A DNA stretch of 64,000 nt, taken from Duffyella gerundensis (lineage in GTDB: Bacteria > Pseudomonadota > Gammaproteobacteria > Enterobacterales > Enterobacteriaceae). Shown here piece after piece: positions 10,078-55,537 of the stretch. The stretch lies in assembly GCF_001517405.1 (NCBI RefSeq), contig NZ_LN907827.1, forward strand, positions 2,672,587 through 2,736,586, read 5' to 3'. The first letter of the stretch is position 1. Each line of letters begins with the position of its first letter. The notes under the pieces were generated by a model, which was not told the DNA's origin, made no database searches, and saw only the letters and a list, made by a program, of their open reading frames with translations. The translations under genes and the position numbers were made by a program.

Positions 10078-11295
10078 ATGAATTTTCAAATTGATAAATC
10101 CGGCAAGCTTGATGGCGTGTGTTATGACATTCGCGGCCCTGTTCTGAAAGAGGCAAAGCGTCTTGAAGAGGAAGGGAATAAAGTTCTCAAGCTGAATATC
10201 GGCAATCCTGCGCCATTCGGCTTCGAAGCGCCGGATGAAATCCTTGTCGATGTGATCCGCAACCTGCCCAGCGCACAAGGCTACTGCGATTCAAAAGGCC
10301 TCTACTCTGCACGTAAAGCGATCGTGCAGCACTATCAGGCGCGCGATATGCGTGACATGACGGTAGAAGATGTCTACATCGGCAATGGCGTATCAGAGCT
10401 AATTGTCCAGTCGATGCAGGCACTGCTGAATATGGGCGATGAAATGCTGGTTCCGGCGCCTGACTATCCGCTCTGGACCGCCGCAGTTTCTTTGTCGAGC
10501 GGTAAAGCTGTGCATTATCTCTGCGACGAACAACAGGGCTGGTTCCCTGACCTCGACGATATTCGCAGCAAAATCACTCCGCGCACCCGCGGCATTGTGA
10601 TCATCAATCCCAATAACCCTACCGGTGCGGTATACAGCAAAGAGCTGCTGATGGAAGTGGTTGAAATCGCCCGCCAGCATAATTTGATCATTTTCGCCGA
10701 TGAGATTTACGACAAAATTCTGTATGACGATGCGCAGCACCATTCTATCGCTGCACTGGCACCAGATTTGCTGACCCTGACCTTTAACGGCCTCTCCAAG
10801 ACTTACCGTGTAGCGGGTTTCCGTCAGGGTTGGATGGTGTTAAACGGCCCGAAAAAGCATGCCAAAGGCTACATTGAAGGGCTGGAAATGCTGGCGTCGA
10901 TGCGTCTCTGCGCTAACGTCCCGGCACAGCATGCCATTCAGACGGCGCTGGGCGGTTATCAAAGTATCAGCGAGTTTATCGTGCCGGGTGGACGGCTCTA
11001 TGAACAGCGCCAGCGTGCCTGGGAGATGATCAACGATATTCCCGGCGTGAGCTGCGTGAAGCCTCAGGGCGCGCTGTACATGTTTCCGCGCATTGATGCT
11101 AAAAAATTCAACCTTCATGATGATCAGAAAATGGTGCTGGATTTCCTGCTGCAGCAGAAAGTGCTGTTGGTTCAGGGAACCGCGTTCAACTGGCCGTGGC
11201 CCGATCACGTCCGTATTGTCACCCTGCCCCGCGTGGATGAACTGGAGATGGCCATCGGCAAATTTGGCCGCTTCCTGGAAAACTATCGTCAATAA
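10078..11295 (+). CDS. alaA: Glutamate-pyruvate aminotransferase AlaA
   Basis: PLP-dependent class I/II aminotransferase, the main enzyme making alanine from pyruvate with glutamate as donor. It has 405 residues, the same length as E. coli AlaA (formerly YfbQ). Landmarks: NIGNPAPFGFEAPDE, PNNPTGAVYS, FADEIYDKI and the PLP lysine in FNGLSKTYRVAGFRQGW. An open frame extends 54 codons further upstream, but the ATG at 10078 has an AAGGCGAG ribosome site at the right distance and matches the E. coli N-terminus, so it is chosen. Confidence 0.97.
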   Translation: MNFQIDKSGKLDGVCYDIRGPVLKEAKRLEEEGNKVLKLNIGNPAPFGFEAPDEILVDVIRNLPSAQGYCDSKGLYSARKAIVQHYQARDMRDMTVEDVYIGNGVSELIVQSMQALLNMGDEMLVPAPDYPLWTAAVSLSSGKAVHYLCDEQQGWFPDLDDIRSKITPRTRGIVIINPNNPTGAVYSKELLMEVVEIARQHNLIIFADEIYDKILYDDAQHHSIAALAPDLLTLTFNGLSKTYRVAGFRQGWMVLNGPKKHAKGYIEGLEMLASMRLCANVPAQHAIQTALGGYQSISEFIVPGGRLYEQRQRAWEMINDIPGVSCVKPQGALYMFPRIDAKKFNLHDDQKMVLDFLLQQKVLLVQGTAFNWPWPDHVRIVTLPRVDELEMAIGKFGRFLENYRQ

Positions 11296-11321
11296 GTCCG
11301 CGTGATATACTCTTTCAGCTT

Positions 11322-11347
11322 CGGGGAGCGACTCGCTTTGCTCCCCG
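11322..11347 (+). terminator. Stem-loop between alaA and yfbR (possible attenuator)
   Basis: Stem CGGGGAGC / GCTCCCCG (8 bp) with a 10-base loop, 27 bp after the alaA stop and 27 bp before the yfbR start. There is no T-run after it, so it is more likely an mRNA-stabilising or attenuating structure than a full terminator. Confidence 0.4.
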
Positions 11348-11373
11348 TCGTCTGAACTCAAAGGATGTTTATC

Positions 11374-11973
11374 ATGCAGCAAAGCCATTTTTTCGCCCAT
11401 CTGTCCCGACTAAAACTGATTAACCGCTGGCCGCTAATGCGCAACGTGCGCACAGAAAACGTTTCTGAGCACAGCCTGCAGGTTGCCATGGTCGCACACG
11501 CTCTGGCCCTGATTAAAAATATGAAGTTTGGCGGTCAGCTCAACGCGGAACGCATCGCGTTGATGGCGATCTACCATGATGCCAGCGAAGTGCTGACCGG
11601 CGATCTGCCCACGCCCGTGAAGTATTACAACGAGCAGATTGCCCACGAATATAAAAAGATTGAAAAGATTGCCCAGCAAAAGCTGATAGAAATGTTGCCG
11701 GAAGAGCTACAGGAAGCCTGGCGTCCATTTCTGGACGAGCATGCGCATTCGGAAGAGGAGACCGCGATAGTCAAGCAGGCAGACGCGCTCTGCGCCTACC
11801 TGAAATGTCTTGAAGAGCTGTCGGCGGGTAATAATGAATTTCGCTTAGCCAAAGCGCGCCTGGAGAAAACCCTTCATCAGCGTCGTAGCCCGGAGATGGA
11901 CTACTTTATGGCGGTTTTTGTGCCCAGCTTTACCCTGTCACTTGATGAAATCTCACAGGATTCCCCTTTGTAA
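11374..11973 (+). CDS. yfbR: 5'-deoxynucleotidase YfbR
   Basis: HD-domain phosphohydrolase that removes phosphate from deoxyribonucleoside 5'-monophosphates such as dCMP, helping thymidylate precursor balance. It has 199 residues, as in E. coli. The metal ligands are in VSEHSLQVA (His), [15 protein letters not shown] (His-Asp) and [13 protein letters not shown] (Asp). The start is the ATG at 11374, eight bases after AAGGA; an in-frame ATG three codons upstream sits too close to that site. It is transcribed after alaA and converges on hxpA. Confidence 0.96.
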
Positions 11974-11989
11974 ACCGGGCGTCCGCGGC

Positions 11990-12649
11990 TTAGTGCTTTC
12001 TGAACACGTCAATCGTACCGTCATCATTTTTGCTGACGATCAGCTCTTCCAGCGAGGTGAGTTGCATAGCAACCTCATTCAGCCGCGCAGCATCCGCCGG
12101 CGCATTCACCGCAACAACGTGCGCGCCTGCGGCCAAACCGGAAAGGATTCCGGCTGGCGCATCTTCCACCACCACACACTCTTCAGAGTCGAGTTCCAGC
12201 AGTTGCGCCCCTAACAGATAGGCATCCGGCTCGGGCTTACCACGGCTGACACGTTCGGCGGTGACAAAGATTTCTGGCTCCGGCAATCCGGCTGCTTTGT
12301 GGCGCGCGCTGGCGACCGGTTTTGAACCCGAAGTCACGATGGCCCAGGGAATCTGCAATTCGTTCAGCGTAGCCAGTAATTGTTGTGCTCCTGGCAGCGC
12401 ACGTACGCCTTCAGTATCTTCGGCTTCGCGGCTTTCCAGCAGCAGGAATTCATGTTGAATAGCTTCTTCAGGCTGACCCGCCATAAAGTGACGGAGTGAA
12501 GTGATTGCCTGTTTGCCATGAATGAAATCGAGGATCTCATCGGCAGCAATGCCGTGACGCTTGCCCCAGTTGGTCCATGCGCGTTCTACAGCAGGTAAAG
12601 AATCCACCAGCGTGCCGTCTAAATCGAACAGAAAACCTCTACACTTCAC
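11990..12649 (-). CDS. hxpA: Hexitol/sugar phosphatase (HAD family)
   Basis: HAD-superfamily phosphatase formerly called YfbT; the E. coli enzyme dephosphorylates sugar and hexitol phosphates. It has 219 residues. Motif I is FDLDGTLVDS (residues 8-17, nucleophile Asp9), motif II is VTSGSKP, and the late acidic motif is VVEDAPAG. The start is GTG at 12649, preceded by AAGGAACGG. It ends 16 bp from the convergent yfbR stop. Confidence 0.94.
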   Translation of the reverse strand: MKCRGFLFDLDGTLVDSLPAVERAWTNWGKRHGIAADEILDFIHGKQAITSLRHFMAGQPEEAIQHEFLLLESREAEDTEGVRALPGAQQLLATLNELQIPWAIVTSGSKPVASARHKAAGLPEPEIFVTAERVSRGKPEPDAYLLGAQLLELDSEECVVVEDAPAGILSGLAAGAHVVAVNAPADAARLNEVAMQLTSLEELIVSKNDDGTIDVFRKH

Positions 12650-12756
12650 AAGCCGTTCCTTCTTTCAGGTTGATAATGACCCGCACATTGAACCGCGCCT
12701 GACCCGCTTTGTGCAAACCTAATTGGTTCCGCAGATCTGCGCTATGTTCAGCACAG

Positions 12757-50718: not shown

Positions 50719-51270
50719 ATGAGCAAAAAACAGACGCTGAACGCCGACGATAAGGCCCTGTTCTCGCAGCTAATGGCGGGAACCAAAAAGCTGACGCAGG
50801 ATACCATTCTGCATAAACCGGTACGCAAGCCGGGCCGCGAGCTGCCGGTGAAGCGGATGATTTCCGAGCAGATGGACAACAGCCACTACTTTTCCGATGA
50901 GTTTCAGCCGCTGCTCTCCGCGGAAGGCCCGATGCGCTACGTGCGCAGTGACGTCAGCCATTACGAGCTGAAAAAGCTGCGGCGCGGCGACTATACGCCG
51001 GAGATTTTCCTCGATCTGCACGGCCTGACGCAGAATCAGGCGAAGCAGGAACTTGGCGCGCTGATTGCCGCCTGCCGCCGCGAGCACATTTTTTGTGCCA
51101 GCGTGATGCACGGCTATGGCAAACACGTGCTCAAGCAGCAAACGCCGCTCTGGCTGGCACAGCATCCGCACGTAATGGCGTTTCACCAGGCTCCGAAAAT
51201 GTTTGGCGGCGACGCCGCGCTGCTGGTGCTGATTGAAGTGGAAGAGTGGCAGCCGCCTGAACTGCCATGA
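50719..51270 (+). CDS. smrB: Ribosome rescue endonuclease SmrB
   Basis: Smr-domain nuclease that cleaves mRNA between collided ribosomes. It has 183 residues, as in E. coli. The Smr domain is at about 95-176 with [16 protein letters not shown] and [15 protein letters not shown]; the conserved DxH motif is in the first. I chose the ATG at 50719 ([15 protein letters not shown]) by similarity; the ribosome site upstream is weak (ACAGAACC). It marks the left border of a variable locus. Confidence 0.95.
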
Positions 51271-51640
51271 TCGCTATTCCAGCGACGGCGTAAAAACCAG
51301 CCTATTAGCAACGCCGGGAGCAACAGGCACAGAAGTTAAAAATGGCTTTTGCTGGCGGTTCCCGGGCCGGCGATGTAACACAAGAGACTTGTGGAGTTAA
51401 ATAAGCGGTTAAGTCGCCAGAAAATTAAACTGGATTGGCGTTTCTGTGGTGGCCGAACGCAGAAAAAGAAGAGAATAAAATAAAATAAAATAAAACCGCA
51501 GAGATAAAATAATTCAGTTAATTATCAGTATATTAAATTGACTTCTTCGGTATTAATTAAAAAAGCCCTGCGTATTTTTAATTAAAAATGCAACAACAAA
51601 ACCCGATTAACGATAAATAATTATGGAAAATTCTTTTTTC
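51271..51640. other. AT-rich intergenic region downstream of smrB
   Basis: 370 bp without a gene. From 51470 it is very AT-rich: four TAAAA units in tandem at 51476-51495 and an 11-bp inverted repeat TTAATTAAAAA (51553-51563) / TTTTTAATTAA (51575-51585). The composition contrasts with both neighbours and is typical of H-NS-bound borders of acquired DNA. No attachment site or integrase is seen. Confidence 0.55.
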
Positions 51641-51643
51641 CAT

Positions 51644-51669
51644 TAAAAAAGCCAGCCGCGAGGGCTGGC
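51644..51669 (-). terminator. Rho-independent terminator of the Ig-repeat gene
   Basis: On the minus strand: stem GCCAGCC / GGCTGGC (7 bp) with a five-base loop, then TTTTTT. It lies 20 bp after the stop of the large gene. Confidence 0.88.
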
Positions 51670-51688
51670 TGAATTAGCAAATAATAAA

Positions 51689-54600
51689 TCAGATTAGCTG
51701 GGTTTGCACTCCGCTTTGAATCAGCAGCTCGGCATCCTCGCTGCTGTGCTGCCAGACGCTGTACTCCAAGCCGCCCACCGTTATGGTGCCGCTGAGCTGC
51801 GACCAATCGCCGTTATCACGCCCGTCGCCCAGCAGGTCGTCAAGGTTAACCACGTCGCTGGCATCGCCATTGATCATCAGCTGGGTTTTGCCGTCGGCGA
51901 TAAACAGATCTTTTTCGCCCCAGGCCAGTACATCACCTGCCTTGACCGTCAGCATAGTGCTGCCGTGGCCAGTGAGATCAGCGCCTTTCTGTACGGTGCC
52001 CGCCAGCGCATCTGCCATCAGCAATGTCGGCTGTTCACTATCAACACGATTGATTTCCGGCTCGATAACCACGTTATCAAACCAGAAGTCGTTACCATTG
52101 CCAGACTTCTCTCCGTTGGTTACCGCTACACGTACGGTTTTGCTTTCCGTCGCAACGTAGGTACCGCTGAGATGAATCCAACTTTCGGTTATTGGAGTTT
52201 CAGGAATAACAGTTTGCCCATCAACTTTCATGCCCAGCTTTGGCGCCTGATGCTTATCATTTGCCCTAAATGCTTCAAATTCAAAGTGATATACCTGTCC
52301 CGCCACTACGGTAATGTCACGATAAATAATGTCGCCATCGTATCCACTTTCGGTCTTATCGTCAGTGTGGCTGTTTACGCCGATACCTGAGCCATAACTT
52401 TTAACGGCCATTTCGTTTTCTTTGGCATATTTTCCTGCTGCCGACCAGCCCTGTAGCGTACCGTCGTTAAAGTCCCACACGGTTCGGCTTTCAATCAGGT
52501 TGTCACGCACTTCTATATACATTTGTGAACGAAGTTCGCCTTCATTGCCCGCAGCATCGACCGATTTAACCCGGAAGTGCCAGCGATCGTCTGTCAGCTC
52601 AGGAGCCGGAATCGTTACTTTCCAGTTGCCGTTTTCATCAGCCCAGGTTTCAACGCTACGGTTATTGTTTTCCCACCCTTCTTGTCCTTTTGCCAGCACG
52701 ACGATAATTTTGCTGTTTGGCTCGCCCGTGCCGCGGATTTCTGGTGTGCGATCGTTGGTAAAATCGCCATCTGCCAGTTCGCGCAGAGATCCTTCGTTAT
52801 CCCAAATAGCGGTAATAACCGGTTCTGCCGCACTATCGCTTTTAATATCCAGCTGAAAACTGGTGGAATAATCGAAACCGGCTGAGGTATTACTCACAAA
52901 AAAATCCCACTTATGAGCATGGTTCAGTTGCGGTGTGAATGACCACTCGCCTTTGGCGTTGGCTTTGACGCTGGCGAGCGGTTCAAATGCGATGGATAAG
53001 CGGCCGTATTGAATATAGACAATGCTGTTTGCTTCGGCTTGACCGCGCAGCGTTGGCGTGCGATCGTCAGTGGAGGCGCCGTTTACCAGCTCACCGGTGC
53101 GTATACCGAAGTCATCGTATGCATCAATAATCACTGGCTTCAGCGCATTGCCGCTTTTTAACTCCAGCTGGAAAACCGTCTCAACGTCATCACGATTAGA
53201 CGAAGTGCTGGCATAAAAGTCCCACGTATAATCCTGATAAAGATTCGGCGTAAACGACCATTCGCCTTTCGCATTGGCCTGCACGCTGGCAGTAGGCTCC
53301 CAGGACACACCCGAGCGGCCATAATGAATATAAACGATGCTGTTTGCTTCCGCAGTGCCGCGCAGCGTCGGCGTGCGATCGTCAGTGGAGGCGCCGTTTA
53401 CCAGCTCACCGGTGCGCATACCGAAGTCATCGTATGCATCAATAATTACTGGCTTCAGCGCATTGCCGCTTTTCACATCAAGCTGGAACACCGGCGTACC
53501 ATCGCGCCAGTTGGTCGTCGGTGAAGCGTAAAAATCCCACGTTTGATCCTGATACAACTCGGGGGTAAACGTCCATTCGCCTTTTGCGTTAGCTTTGACG
53601 CTGGCCACAGGCTCCCATGAGACGCCGGAGCGGCCATAATGAATGTAAACAATACTGTTTGCTTCCGCAGTGCCGCGCAGCGTCGGCGTGCGGTCATCGG
53701 TCACTGCGCCGTTTGCCAGCTCACCGGTAGCGGGGCCTGCATCATCAACCACATCAACAATCACTGGCTTCAGTGCGTTGCTGCCCGCATCAGCAATGGT
53801 CAGACGGAAAATATCAGCGTTCGGGTTGCGCGTCGCGCTGCTGCTGACCTGAAAGTCGTAAGTGCCCGCATTTAGCTGTGCGGTTTCTACAGACCAGCGG
53901 CCATCTGCCTCGGCCCGGGAGCTGGCCACAATCAGCCACTGCCCGGCGGCGTTTGCGGCGAATACGTACACCACGCTGCCCGGCTCGGCCATGCCCTTCA
54001 GCATAGGCCGGTTATCGTCGGTCATCGCGCCAAACGCCAGTTCCCCCTGCGCTGTGCCCACGTTGTCTGCTCCGCCGGTAATATAGGGATCAGATGCAGG
54101 CGGCGCATTGGGATCCTTGATATTTACCACCCAACTTTCGGAAGGTTCGCTGACATGATCATGGCGATCGCTGGAGGTGACAAAAACTTCTCGCTGGCCG
54201 TAGCCCAACTCTTCCTCAATCGTCCAGTAGCCATTAAAATTGGCTACCGCTGATCCGAGCAGCGCGCCGGTATCTTTGTCAAACAGGCGCACAATGCTCT
54301 GCGGCTCCGCCGAACCGCTGAATCGTGGTTTTGTGTCATCGGTGATTTGACCGTTGAACAACGGCATGGAATCGCCCACATCGTCCTGCACCGTCTGAAT
54401 TATCGGCTTCGCTGGCGGCGTGGTATCGACATGAATTGTTGACAGGTATGGCGGGCCGTAATTCATCGCCCGATCGATGTAGCGTACCGACAGATTATGC
54501 TGGCCGTCCATCAGCATTACCGGCAACTGGAATGTCCAGGAGCCGTCGGCCTCAATGTTCGTGGTATAGAGCATATTATTAATCACAAACTCTACTTTAC

Positions 54601-54697
54601 CGCCCGCCTCTTTAGGCTCGGAGCCGGCCCAGTACTGGTAGGGAGAGCTGGTGTAGTCTGCGTTGCCGCTGGTAGGATCCCATGGGAAATCTGACAT
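51689..54697 (-). CDS. Large Ig-like repeat protein, putative secreted adhesin
   Basis: 1002-residue, acidic, Thr/Asp-rich protein built of bacterial Ig-like (Big_13-type) domains, recognisable by the motif TDDRTPTLRGTAEANSIVYI. About three divergent Ig units cover 1-305. Three closely similar 105-residue repeats lie at 306-410, 411-515 and 516-620, and another divergent Ig at 621-731. A galactose-binding/CBM-like jelly-roll domain is at about 739-880 (WDFNDGTLQGWSAAGKYA to DFWFDNVVIEP). The tail at about 905-1002 (GEKDLFIADGKTQLMINGD to VQTQLI) resembles C-termini of other long enterobacterial Ig-repeat proteins I recall. There is no N-terminal signal peptide or membrane anchor, and the ATG has a good ribosome site (AGGACAG), so it is not obviously truncated. 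Type I secretion is inferred from the architecture; no export genes are adjacent. In E. coli this smrB-sixA space holds a fimbrial cluster. Confidence 0.88.
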   Translation of the reverse strand: MSDFPWDPTSGNADYTSSPYQYWAGSEPKEAGGKVEFVINNMLYTTNIEADGSWTFQLPVMLMDGQHNLSVRYIDRAMNYGPPYLSTIHVDTTPPAKPIIQTVQDDVGDSMPLFNGQITDDTKPRFSGSAEPQSIVRLFDKDTGALLGSAVANFNGYWTIEEELGYGQREVFVTSSDRHDHVSEPSESWVVNIKDPNAPPASDPYITGGADNVGTAQGELAFGAMTDDNRPMLKGMAEPGSVVYVFAANAAGQWLIVASSRAEADGRWSVETAQLNAGTYDFQVSSSATRNPNADIFRLTIADAGSNALKPVIVDVVDDAGPATGELANGAVTDDRTPTLRGTAEANSIVYIHYGRSGVSWEPVASVKANAKGEWTFTPELYQDQTWDFYASPTTNWRDGTPVFQLDVKSGNALKPVIIDAYDDFGMRTGELVNGASTDDRTPTLRGTAEANSIVYIHYGRSGVSWEPTASVQANAKGEWSFTPNLYQDYTWDFYASTSSNRDDVETVFQLELKSGNALKPVIIDAYDDFGIRTGELVNGASTDDRTPTLRGQAEANSIVYIQYGRLSIAFEPLASVKANAKGEWSFTPQLNHAHKWDFFVSNTSAGFDYSTSFQLDIKSDSAAEPVITAIWDNEGSLRELADGDFTNDRTPEIRGTGEPNSKIIVVLAKGQEGWENNNRSVETWADENGNWKVTIPAPELTDDRWHFRVKSVDAAGNEGELRSQMYIEVRDNLIESRTVWDFNDGTLQGWSAAGKYAKENEMAVKSYGSGIGVNSHTDDKTESGYDGDIIYRDITVVAGQVYHFEFEAFRANDKHQAPKLGMKVDGQTVIPETPITESWIHLSGTYVATESKTVRVAVTNGEKSGNGNDFWFDNVVIEPEINRVDSEQPTLLMADALAGTVQKGADLTGHGSTMLTVKAGDVLAWGEKDLFIADGKTQLMINGDASDVVNLDDLLGDGRDNGDWSQLSGTITVGGLEYSVWQHSSEDAELLIQSGVQTQLI
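52838..53782 (-). repeat. Three tandem 315-bp repeats inside the Ig-repeat gene
   Basis: Units at 53468-53782, 53153-53467 and 52838-53152, each exactly 315 bp (105 codons). Long stretches are identical between units, for example the block encoding STDDRTPTLRG and the segment ANAKGEW. Differences concentrate in the C-terminal third of each unit. Confidence 0.9.
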
Positions 54698-55054
54698 TGT
54701 CTGTCCTGTGTATTTTTAGGTTATAAACGTGCGTAACCTCTCACTTCGATGATTTCTCATGTACGGGCTTTGTCTCAAAAACGGGAATGTGCAGATGAAA
54801 AAGAATTAATAAACTTGAGATTAATTGCAGCGAAATAAAAACGAAGAAACGCAGTGTTTATTGCTGCCGCGCCTGGCTAATTAAAAGGCGGGTTTACCGA
54901 TATAAATGTTTGATAAAATGCTGACGTCATTCTTTGGAGAAGAAAGAAAGTGTTATTCCGCGCAAAGCAAACGGATAAAAGAGGCGAATAGTTATTGGGA
55001 ATTGAAAATGAGAGGGTTAACGGTGAATGCCGGAGCGCGCTCCGGCAGAGTAGA
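54698..55054. promoter_or_regulatory. Upstream region of the Ig-repeat gene
   Basis: 357 bp without a gene, moderately AT-rich, between the Ig-repeat gene and sixA. It should contain the promoter of the former; a -10-like TATAAC lies on the minus strand near 54722. I find no clear -35 element or known operator. Confidence 0.45.
55028..55047 (-). terminator. Perfect palindrome after sixA, possible terminator
   Basis: TGCCGGAGCG / CGCTCCGGCA, a perfect 20-bp palindrome that can fold as an 8-bp stem with loop CGCG. It begins 8 bp past the sixA stop. The following bases (TTCACCG on the minus strand) are a poor T-tract, so termination may be weak. Confidence 0.5.
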
Positions 55055-55537
55055 TTAGATCGCTTTGGCTAATTTAGATGGGCTGACCTGCCACTCCAGT
55101 TTGCTTTCCGTGTCATCGTCGCTAAAAGTCACGCAGGCGATAGCGGAGGTAGCGAACATCGGCGGCGCTTCCGCCGGGCACAGCTCGCTGACCAGATAGC
55201 CCACCAGCGGCAAGTGCGAAATCACCAGCGCAGATTTTACGCCCATTTTTTCCAGCGCATGCAGGTAGCTAGCGACCTGAGCGGGATCGCCGCCCGGCGT
55301 CAGTTCAGGCAGCACTTCTGCCGAAACCGGCAGCTTCAGCGCTTCGCGCACCGTTGCCAGCGTCTGCTCTGCACGCAGATAGGGACTAACCAGGACACGC
55401 TCAATATTCAGGTTCTGGCCGTTAAGCCAGGTCGCCATTTGGCGTGATTCGTCACAGCCGCAATGTGTGAGGGGTCTTACCGAATCACTTGCTGCTTCAA
55501 GGGCGGCATCGCCGTGACGCATGATGAAAACTTGCAT
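55055..55537 (-). CDS. sixA: Phosphohistidine phosphatase SixA
   Basis: Histidine-phosphatase-superfamily enzyme that dephosphorylates phosphohistidine, in E. coli on the HPt domain of ArcB and on the nitrogen PTS protein NPr. It has 160 residues. The catalytic RHG motif is at residues 7-9 (VFIMRHGDA), with LVSPYLRAEQT and ISHLPLVGYLV carrying further active-site Arg and His. Confidence 0.95.
   Translation of the reverse strand: MQVFIMRHGDAALEAASDSVRPLTHCGCDESRQMATWLNGQNLNIERVLVSPYLRAEQTLATVREALKLPVSAEVLPELTPGGDPAQVASYLHALEKMGVKSALVISHLPLVGYLVSELCPAEAPPMFATSAIACVTFSDDDTESKLEWQVSPSKLAKAI

What the first reader, a model, noticed from the sequence alone, without database searches (positions are those of the whole stretch)
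51271..55054. Single-gene Ig-repeat adhesin locus in a variable site between smrB and sixA
A 1002-residue Ig-repeat protein with AT-rich flanks and its own terminator occupies the interval where E. coli has a fimbrial cluster. Both are surface-interaction functions placed in the same chromosomal gap, which suggests a hotspot for swapping adhesion genes. The absence of mobility genes fits exchange by homologous recombination in the conserved flanks (smrB, sixA).
Basis: partly seen in the sequence, partly recalled or inferred. Interest (0 to 1): 0.62.

Follow-up and report, generated by a model that had tools for sequence, protein, structure and literature searches.

The report
Orphan type-I-secreted Ig-lectin protein
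The gene between smrB and sixA most likely encodes a secreted, rod-like, sugar-binding protein that leaves the cell through a type I secretion machine encoded about 0.5 Mb away; it sits in a gap that is empty in nearly all relatives, so it is a lineage-specific insertion rather than evidence of an adhesin-swapping hotspot.

Summary
In detail: the smrB-sixA gap (51271-55054) contains one 1002-aa ORF (51689-54697, minus strand) with about seven Big_13 Ig-like repeats, its own terminator and AT-rich flanks; E. coli K-12 has a fimbrial cluster there. The 'hotspot for swapping adhesion genes' does not hold: in 65 of 68 sampled loci, nearly all Erwiniaceae, the gap is 14-296 bp, and the few other occupants are a chemoreceptor, glycosyltransferases, a phosphatase set and a deaminase-permease pair. 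Convergent gene ends make it a tolerant insertion site. Recombination in the flanks could not be tested.

The protein has no Sec signal. It has an EclA-C-like sugar-binding module (735-870) and a ~115-aa tail that recurs only at the C-terminal ends of Ig-repeat proteins, several beside TolC-HlyD-LssB operons; all 15 genomes with the tail have LssB. This genome carries a complete exporter operon of that clade with no substrate gene beside it, and five other unlinked tail-bearing genes. Best reading: an orphan substrate exported in trans by a stand-alone type I secretion system. New member of a known kind, modest interest; export, sugar binding and surface retention are untested.

The parts
50719..51270 (+). 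smrB, flank of the insertion (183 aa from its ATG)
   Evidence: ORF; homologues in 51 of 60 relatives and 70 loci of genome contigs
51271..51688 (.). AT-rich spacer, 38% GC
51650..51670 (-). intrinsic terminator of the Ig gene (AGCCAGCCCTCGCGGCTGGCT then TTTTT)
51689..54697 (-). Ig-repeat gene, 1002 aa, no Sec signal, no Cys
51692..52036 (-). C-terminal ~115-aa tail, inferred type I secretion signal module
   Evidence: tail profile hits only C-terminal ends of Ig-repeat proteins; alignment
52088..52495 (-). sugar-binding module (residues 735-870), CBM_4_9 / EclA-C-like
52896..53728 (-). three near-identical Ig-repeat units, 315-bp period
54698..55054 (.). AT-rich upstream region with the putative promoter, 41% GC
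   Evidence: the promoter-like match is no better than chance
55028..55047 (.). 20-bp palindrome TGCCGGAGCGCGCTCCGGCA beside the sixA stop, probable remnant of the ancestral smrB/sixA terminator
   Evidence: read; GC-rich hairpins fill the short gap of several relatives; inference
55055..55537 (-). sixA, other flank of the insertion
   Evidence: homologues

Best explanation
The gene encodes an orphan substrate of a type I secretion system. The protein is made without a Sec signal; its C-terminal ~115-aa module is recognised by a TolC-HlyD-LssB exporter encoded elsewhere, most likely the operon at G000:C1:3244.6-3250.2 kb, about 0.5 Mb away, which has no substrate gene beside it. Outside the cell it folds into an Ig rod (Ca2+-stabilised by analogy with SiiE-type repeats) with a sugar-binding module near the C-terminal end, and acts as a released or loosely held lectin, matrix protein or adhesin. 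Shown by computation: architecture, tail homology, presence and clade of the exporter, tail-exporter co-occurrence, unlinked paralogues, lineage-specific position. Inferred: export in trans by that exporter, sugar binding, adhesion. The gene entered a gap between two convergent genes that tolerates insertions; its source is unknown.
For: No hydrophobic N-terminus (19-residue Kyte-Doolittle maximum 0.27 near the N-terminus) and no Cys. A tail profile built from the window and nine relatives hits 31 other Ig-repeat proteins, 22 of them outside the profile, always 0-6 residues from the C-terminus; the next matches are insignificant. Tail-bearing genes lie near TolC-HlyD-LssB operons in G360, G026, G415, G404, G211 and G166. 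All 15 genomes with tail hits have LssB against 211 of 392 overall (p 7e-5; by genus 10 of 10 against 82 of 154, p 0.0014). The genome has a second, complete exporter operon without adjacent substrate; its LssB is sister (99) to that of G263, another substrate-less operon in a genome with unlinked tail genes, and groups (95) with the LssB beside a tail gene in G026. Accessory and regulatory neighbours of that operon match those of substrate-linked loci. Ig repeats match solved structures 2yn3 and 7dm0, a biofilm-associated surface protein. The sugar-binding module matches EclA-C, PDB 6YF6 (E 1.7e-6; Z 12.4).
Against: No secretion experiment. The tail belongs to no Pfam or NCBIfam family and has no significant solved fold match (best Z 5.2). 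The genome has two LssB systems, so the choice of exporter is inferred. No retention module was recognised and no LapG (PF06035) is present, so surface attachment is unexplained. The window tail is at most ~50-55% identical to any other and its place in the tail tree is weak.
Confidence: 0.7

Rival explanations
1. Adhesin-swapping hotspot: the gap is a cassette site where adhesion genes are exchanged by homologous recombination in smrB and sixA.
For: E. coli has yfcO-V fimbrial genes in the gap, and these are patchy among E. coli genomes (4241 of 5426 with any match, 2100 with at least 80%); the window has an Ig-repeat protein there; no mobility genes.
Against: 65 of 68 related loci are empty; most other inserts are not adhesins; flanks show no raised identity to any relative and trees are unresolved.
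Confidence: 0.1
2. Same protein class, but exported by the other LssB system of this genome (C1:2621.8-2623.9 kb, beside a giant adhesin), or by either one.
For: The giant adhesin beside that exporter ends in a distantly related tail; exporters with several substrates are documented, and unlinked substrates too (Legionella, PMC7730722).
Against: Its tail differs (insert before LGDVLVQ, gap in the middle) and scores only E 0.006 with the tail profile; its LssB is in another clade.
Confidence: 0.15
3. A non-functional remnant or cytoplasmic protein: a degraded piece of a giant adhesin without an export route.
For: Shorter than classical giant adhesins, no retention region, no linked exporter.
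Against: Intact ORF with start, ribosome-binding-like site, terminator and complete tail; tandem families of similar short proteins occur in this genome and in G263; exporter present.
Confidence: 0.05

Closest known systems
SiiE/BapA-type Ig-repeat adhesins of type I secretion systems
   Same: Big_13/BIg repeats, no Sec signal, C-terminal secretion region, LssB-type exporter in the genome
   Different: About 1000 aa rather than several thousand; no N-terminal region before the repeats; not linked to its exporter; has a lectin-like module. SiiE is 595 kDa with 53 BIg domains, is encoded beside its exporter and is that exporter's only known substrate (PMC5466336)
Ig-like repeat protein Blp2 (NCBIfam NF040520)
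   Same: Similar Ig repeats (194.9 bits)
   Different: Far under the family cut-off of 750 bits: not a member
EclA C-terminal domain, fucose lectin (PDB 6YF6)
   Same: CBM22-like beta-sandwich, 27% identity over 108 residues, GNDF motif with the Ca2+ ligands Gly271 and Asp273 (PMC11875179)
   Different: Ser269 and Thr181 replaced by Gly and Asp, Tyr218 by His in my alignment; no ligand data; part of an Ig-repeat protein instead of a LecA fusion
Unlinked type I substrates, e.g. Legionella RTX proteins and DDxP proteins
   Same: Substrate and exporter genes lie apart; such genes are proposed to move as independent units (PMC7730722)
   Different: No RTX or DDxP modules were recognised here; different tail

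Membership tests
Type I secretion substrate | no N-terminal Sec signal | tested here: met
   no hydrophobic N-terminal stretch; reading frame opens only a few codons further upstream
Type I secretion substrate | C-terminal module shared with proteins encoded beside type I exporters | tested here: met
Type I secretion substrate | a TolC-HlyD-LssB exporter in the genome | tested here: met
   two LssB operons
Type I secretion substrate | secretion depends on the exporter and on the tail | not testable with these tools
   needs gene removals
LapA-type retained adhesin | N-terminal retention module with LapG control | tested here: not met
   the Ig-like region begins within about 30 residues of the N-terminus; no Peptidase_C93 in the genome
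Big_13 Ig-repeat proteins | Big_13 over the curated cut-off | tested here: met
   169.3 bits against 27
Blp2 (NF040520) | score over the curated cut-off | tested here: not met
   194.9 bits against 750
EclA-C-like lectin domain | fold and Ca2+-dependent fucose site | tested here: inconclusive
   fold and GNDF motif agree; part of the site differs; binding not tested
Adhesin-swapping hotspot | frequent occupation, mostly by adhesion genes | tested here: not met
   65 of 68 empty, mixed contents elsewhere

The most novel reading that the evidence does not exclude
One stand-alone type I exporter serves a scattered, extendable set of at least six short Ig-repeat proteins (window gene, four in tandem at 3.21 Mb, one at 0.61 Mb). 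These lack retention modules and are held at the surface in trans by a Sec-exported accessory family (DUF2846-like) found beside the exporter and the substrates, one copy of which is fused to an OmpA peptidoglycan-binding domain between two Ig genes (L016:6765-7634). The surface coat could then be changed by adding single genes anywhere in the genome.
Probability: 0.3. Interest if true: 0.55.

Novelty: new member of a known kind. Interest (0 to 1): 0.3.

Why it matters
It replaces a hotspot reading with a testable exporter-substrate pairing, and describes a secretion-type tail that Pfam and NCBIfam do not hold, found here in ten genera. If one exporter serves many unlinked substrates, annotation by gene neighbourhood misses most of the secreted Ig-repeat proteins of these bacteria.

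Tried and rejected
Phage or plasmid origin: no match of the sugar-binding module plus tail in phage records and a single 48% tail match on a 927-kb Pantoea plasmid. Recent duplication of a paralogue in the genome: the best one is 41% identical over residues 30-609, and the tail tree gives no supported sister. Insertion footprints: no flanking direct repeats or inverted ends beyond short chance-like matches. Recombination breakpoints in smrB/sixA: one genome per genus held, gene trees unresolved. Known fold of the tail: Foldseek found nothing significant; the top rows of VIA-align are mostly the C-terminal RTX parts of other type-I-secreted proteins, but Z is 5.2 or less and the library notes that Z under 8 may mean only a common arrangement, so I count it as a hint at most. 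Literature searches found nothing on this locus. A search with the tail of the second Ig family mostly hit Ig repeats and did not trace that tail.

Full report
Observation. The smrB-sixA interval holds one 1002-aa gene on the minus strand with its own terminator and AT-rich flanks, as described. Pfam and NCBIfam find about seven Big_13-type Ig repeats and a CBM_4_9 module. E. coli K-12 has yfcO to yfcV in the same gap.

Is the site a hotspot? SmrB brought in 70 loci from named genomes; 68 gave a measurable gap. In 65 the gap is 14-296 bp; only P. ananatis, P. allii and P. stewartii hold a 2.2-kb insert, a methyl-accepting chemotaxis receptor. Among 33 other relatives in which both genes are clearly linked, 29 have gaps of 31-791 bp and four have 1.7-4.9 kb (my subtraction from the coordinates). 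Those four hold a GtrA-like protein with a glycosyltransferase (G004, and a shortened version with repeated transposase-like ORFs in G025), a small phosphatase with membrane-protein-like ORFs (G003), and an amidohydrolase with an amino-acid permease (G039). smrB and sixA converge, and several of the short gaps are little more than a GC-rich hairpin. The window keeps a 20-bp palindrome beside the sixA stop. A gap between two gene ends tolerates insertions, which explains unrelated contents without any swapping mechanism (inference).

What the protein is. It has no Sec-like N-terminus and no cysteine. Residues 735-870 match the fucose-binding C-terminal domain of EclA (PDB 6YF6; E 1.7e-6), and the AlphaFold2 model of this part resembles CBM22, CBM4 and EclA-C structures (Z 15.9 at best; 6YF6 Z 12.4, 2.2 A over 108 residues). 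In EclA-C the calcium is held by Ile180, Thr181, Ser269, Gly271 and Asp273 (PMC11875179). In my alignment Gly271 and Asp273 are kept in a GNDF motif, Ser269 and Thr181 are replaced by Gly and Asp. Sugar binding is therefore plausible, its specificity open.

The tail. A profile of the last ~115 residues, built from the window and nine close relatives, hits 31 other Ig-repeat proteins (22 of them outside the profile), always at the C-terminus. The module can be aligned through to the giant adhesin beside this genome's own first type I operon. No Pfam or NCBIfam family covers it. Several tail genes are neighbours of TolC-HlyD-LssB operons. All 15 genomes with the tail have LssB, against 211 of 392. 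Related genomes are not independent, so the genus-level count (10 of 10 against 82 of 154, p 0.0014) is the fairer one.

The exporter. The genome has two LssB operons. The one at 2.62 Mb accompanies a giant adhesin. The one at 3.25 Mb is complete but has no substrate gene beside it. Its LssB is sister to that of G263, a genome with the same arrangement (substrate-less operon, unlinked tail genes), and groups with exporters that sit beside tail genes. Its DUF2846-like accessory proteins, sensor kinase and response regulators match those of substrate-linked loci. It thus looks like an adhesin locus without its adhesin, in a genome with six unlinked tail-bearing genes. Export in trans is inferred, not shown.

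Origin. No orthologue was seen in the gap of any relative. The nearest paralogue is 41% identical, and the tail tree gives no supported sister. GC and third-position GC of the gene (53.7%, 58.4%) lie at the low end of the genes around it but within the range of the window. This fits a gain in this lineage from an unknown source; when and how cannot be said with one genome.

Verdict. The points of interest are the lectin-like module, the unlinked exporter without a substrate of its own, and a candidate anchoring protein.

Noticed in passing
L014 and L015 (G000:C1:303-330 kb); also L016:3928-6699, L017:5065-7374, L018:5818-6321: A second family of Ig-repeat proteins without evident Sec signals, at least six genes in tandem, sharing another tail (SLLQDADxPLF...TQPxEPxAFVP). 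A search with the last 120 aa mostly hit Ig repeats elsewhere; the tail itself was not traced.
   Followed up: partly
L016:6765-7634, L141:6538-7452, L141:7517-8002, L126:7103-7669: DUF2846-like exported accessory proteins beside the type I operon and between Ig genes; the L016 copy has an OmpA peptidoglycan-binding domain and could anchor Ig proteins.
   Followed up: partly
L140:2817-8063 (G000:C1:3229-3235 kb): What looks like a chaperone-usher fimbrial operon lies between the tandem Ig genes at 3.21 Mb and the substrate-less type I operon at 3.25 Mb.
   Followed up: no
L019 (G000:C1:2612-2631 kb): A type I operon with a giant Ig-repeat adhesin and a separate 506-aa Ig protein beside it.
   Followed up: partly
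L099, L100 (G185, G016): The EclA-C-like module also follows what looks like a von Willebrand A domain in genomes without an LssB match, as the EclA paper reports for E. ludwigii.
   Followed up: no
L057-L059, smrB-sixA gap (about 10550-12720): A 606-aa chemoreceptor gene sits in the same gap in P. ananatis, P. allii and P. stewartii.
   Followed up: yes
L139:5229-11647 (E. coli K-12 yfcO-yfcV): The E. coli fimbrial insert is itself patchy: 4241 of 5426 genomes have some match, 2100 hold at least 80% of it.
   Followed up: no
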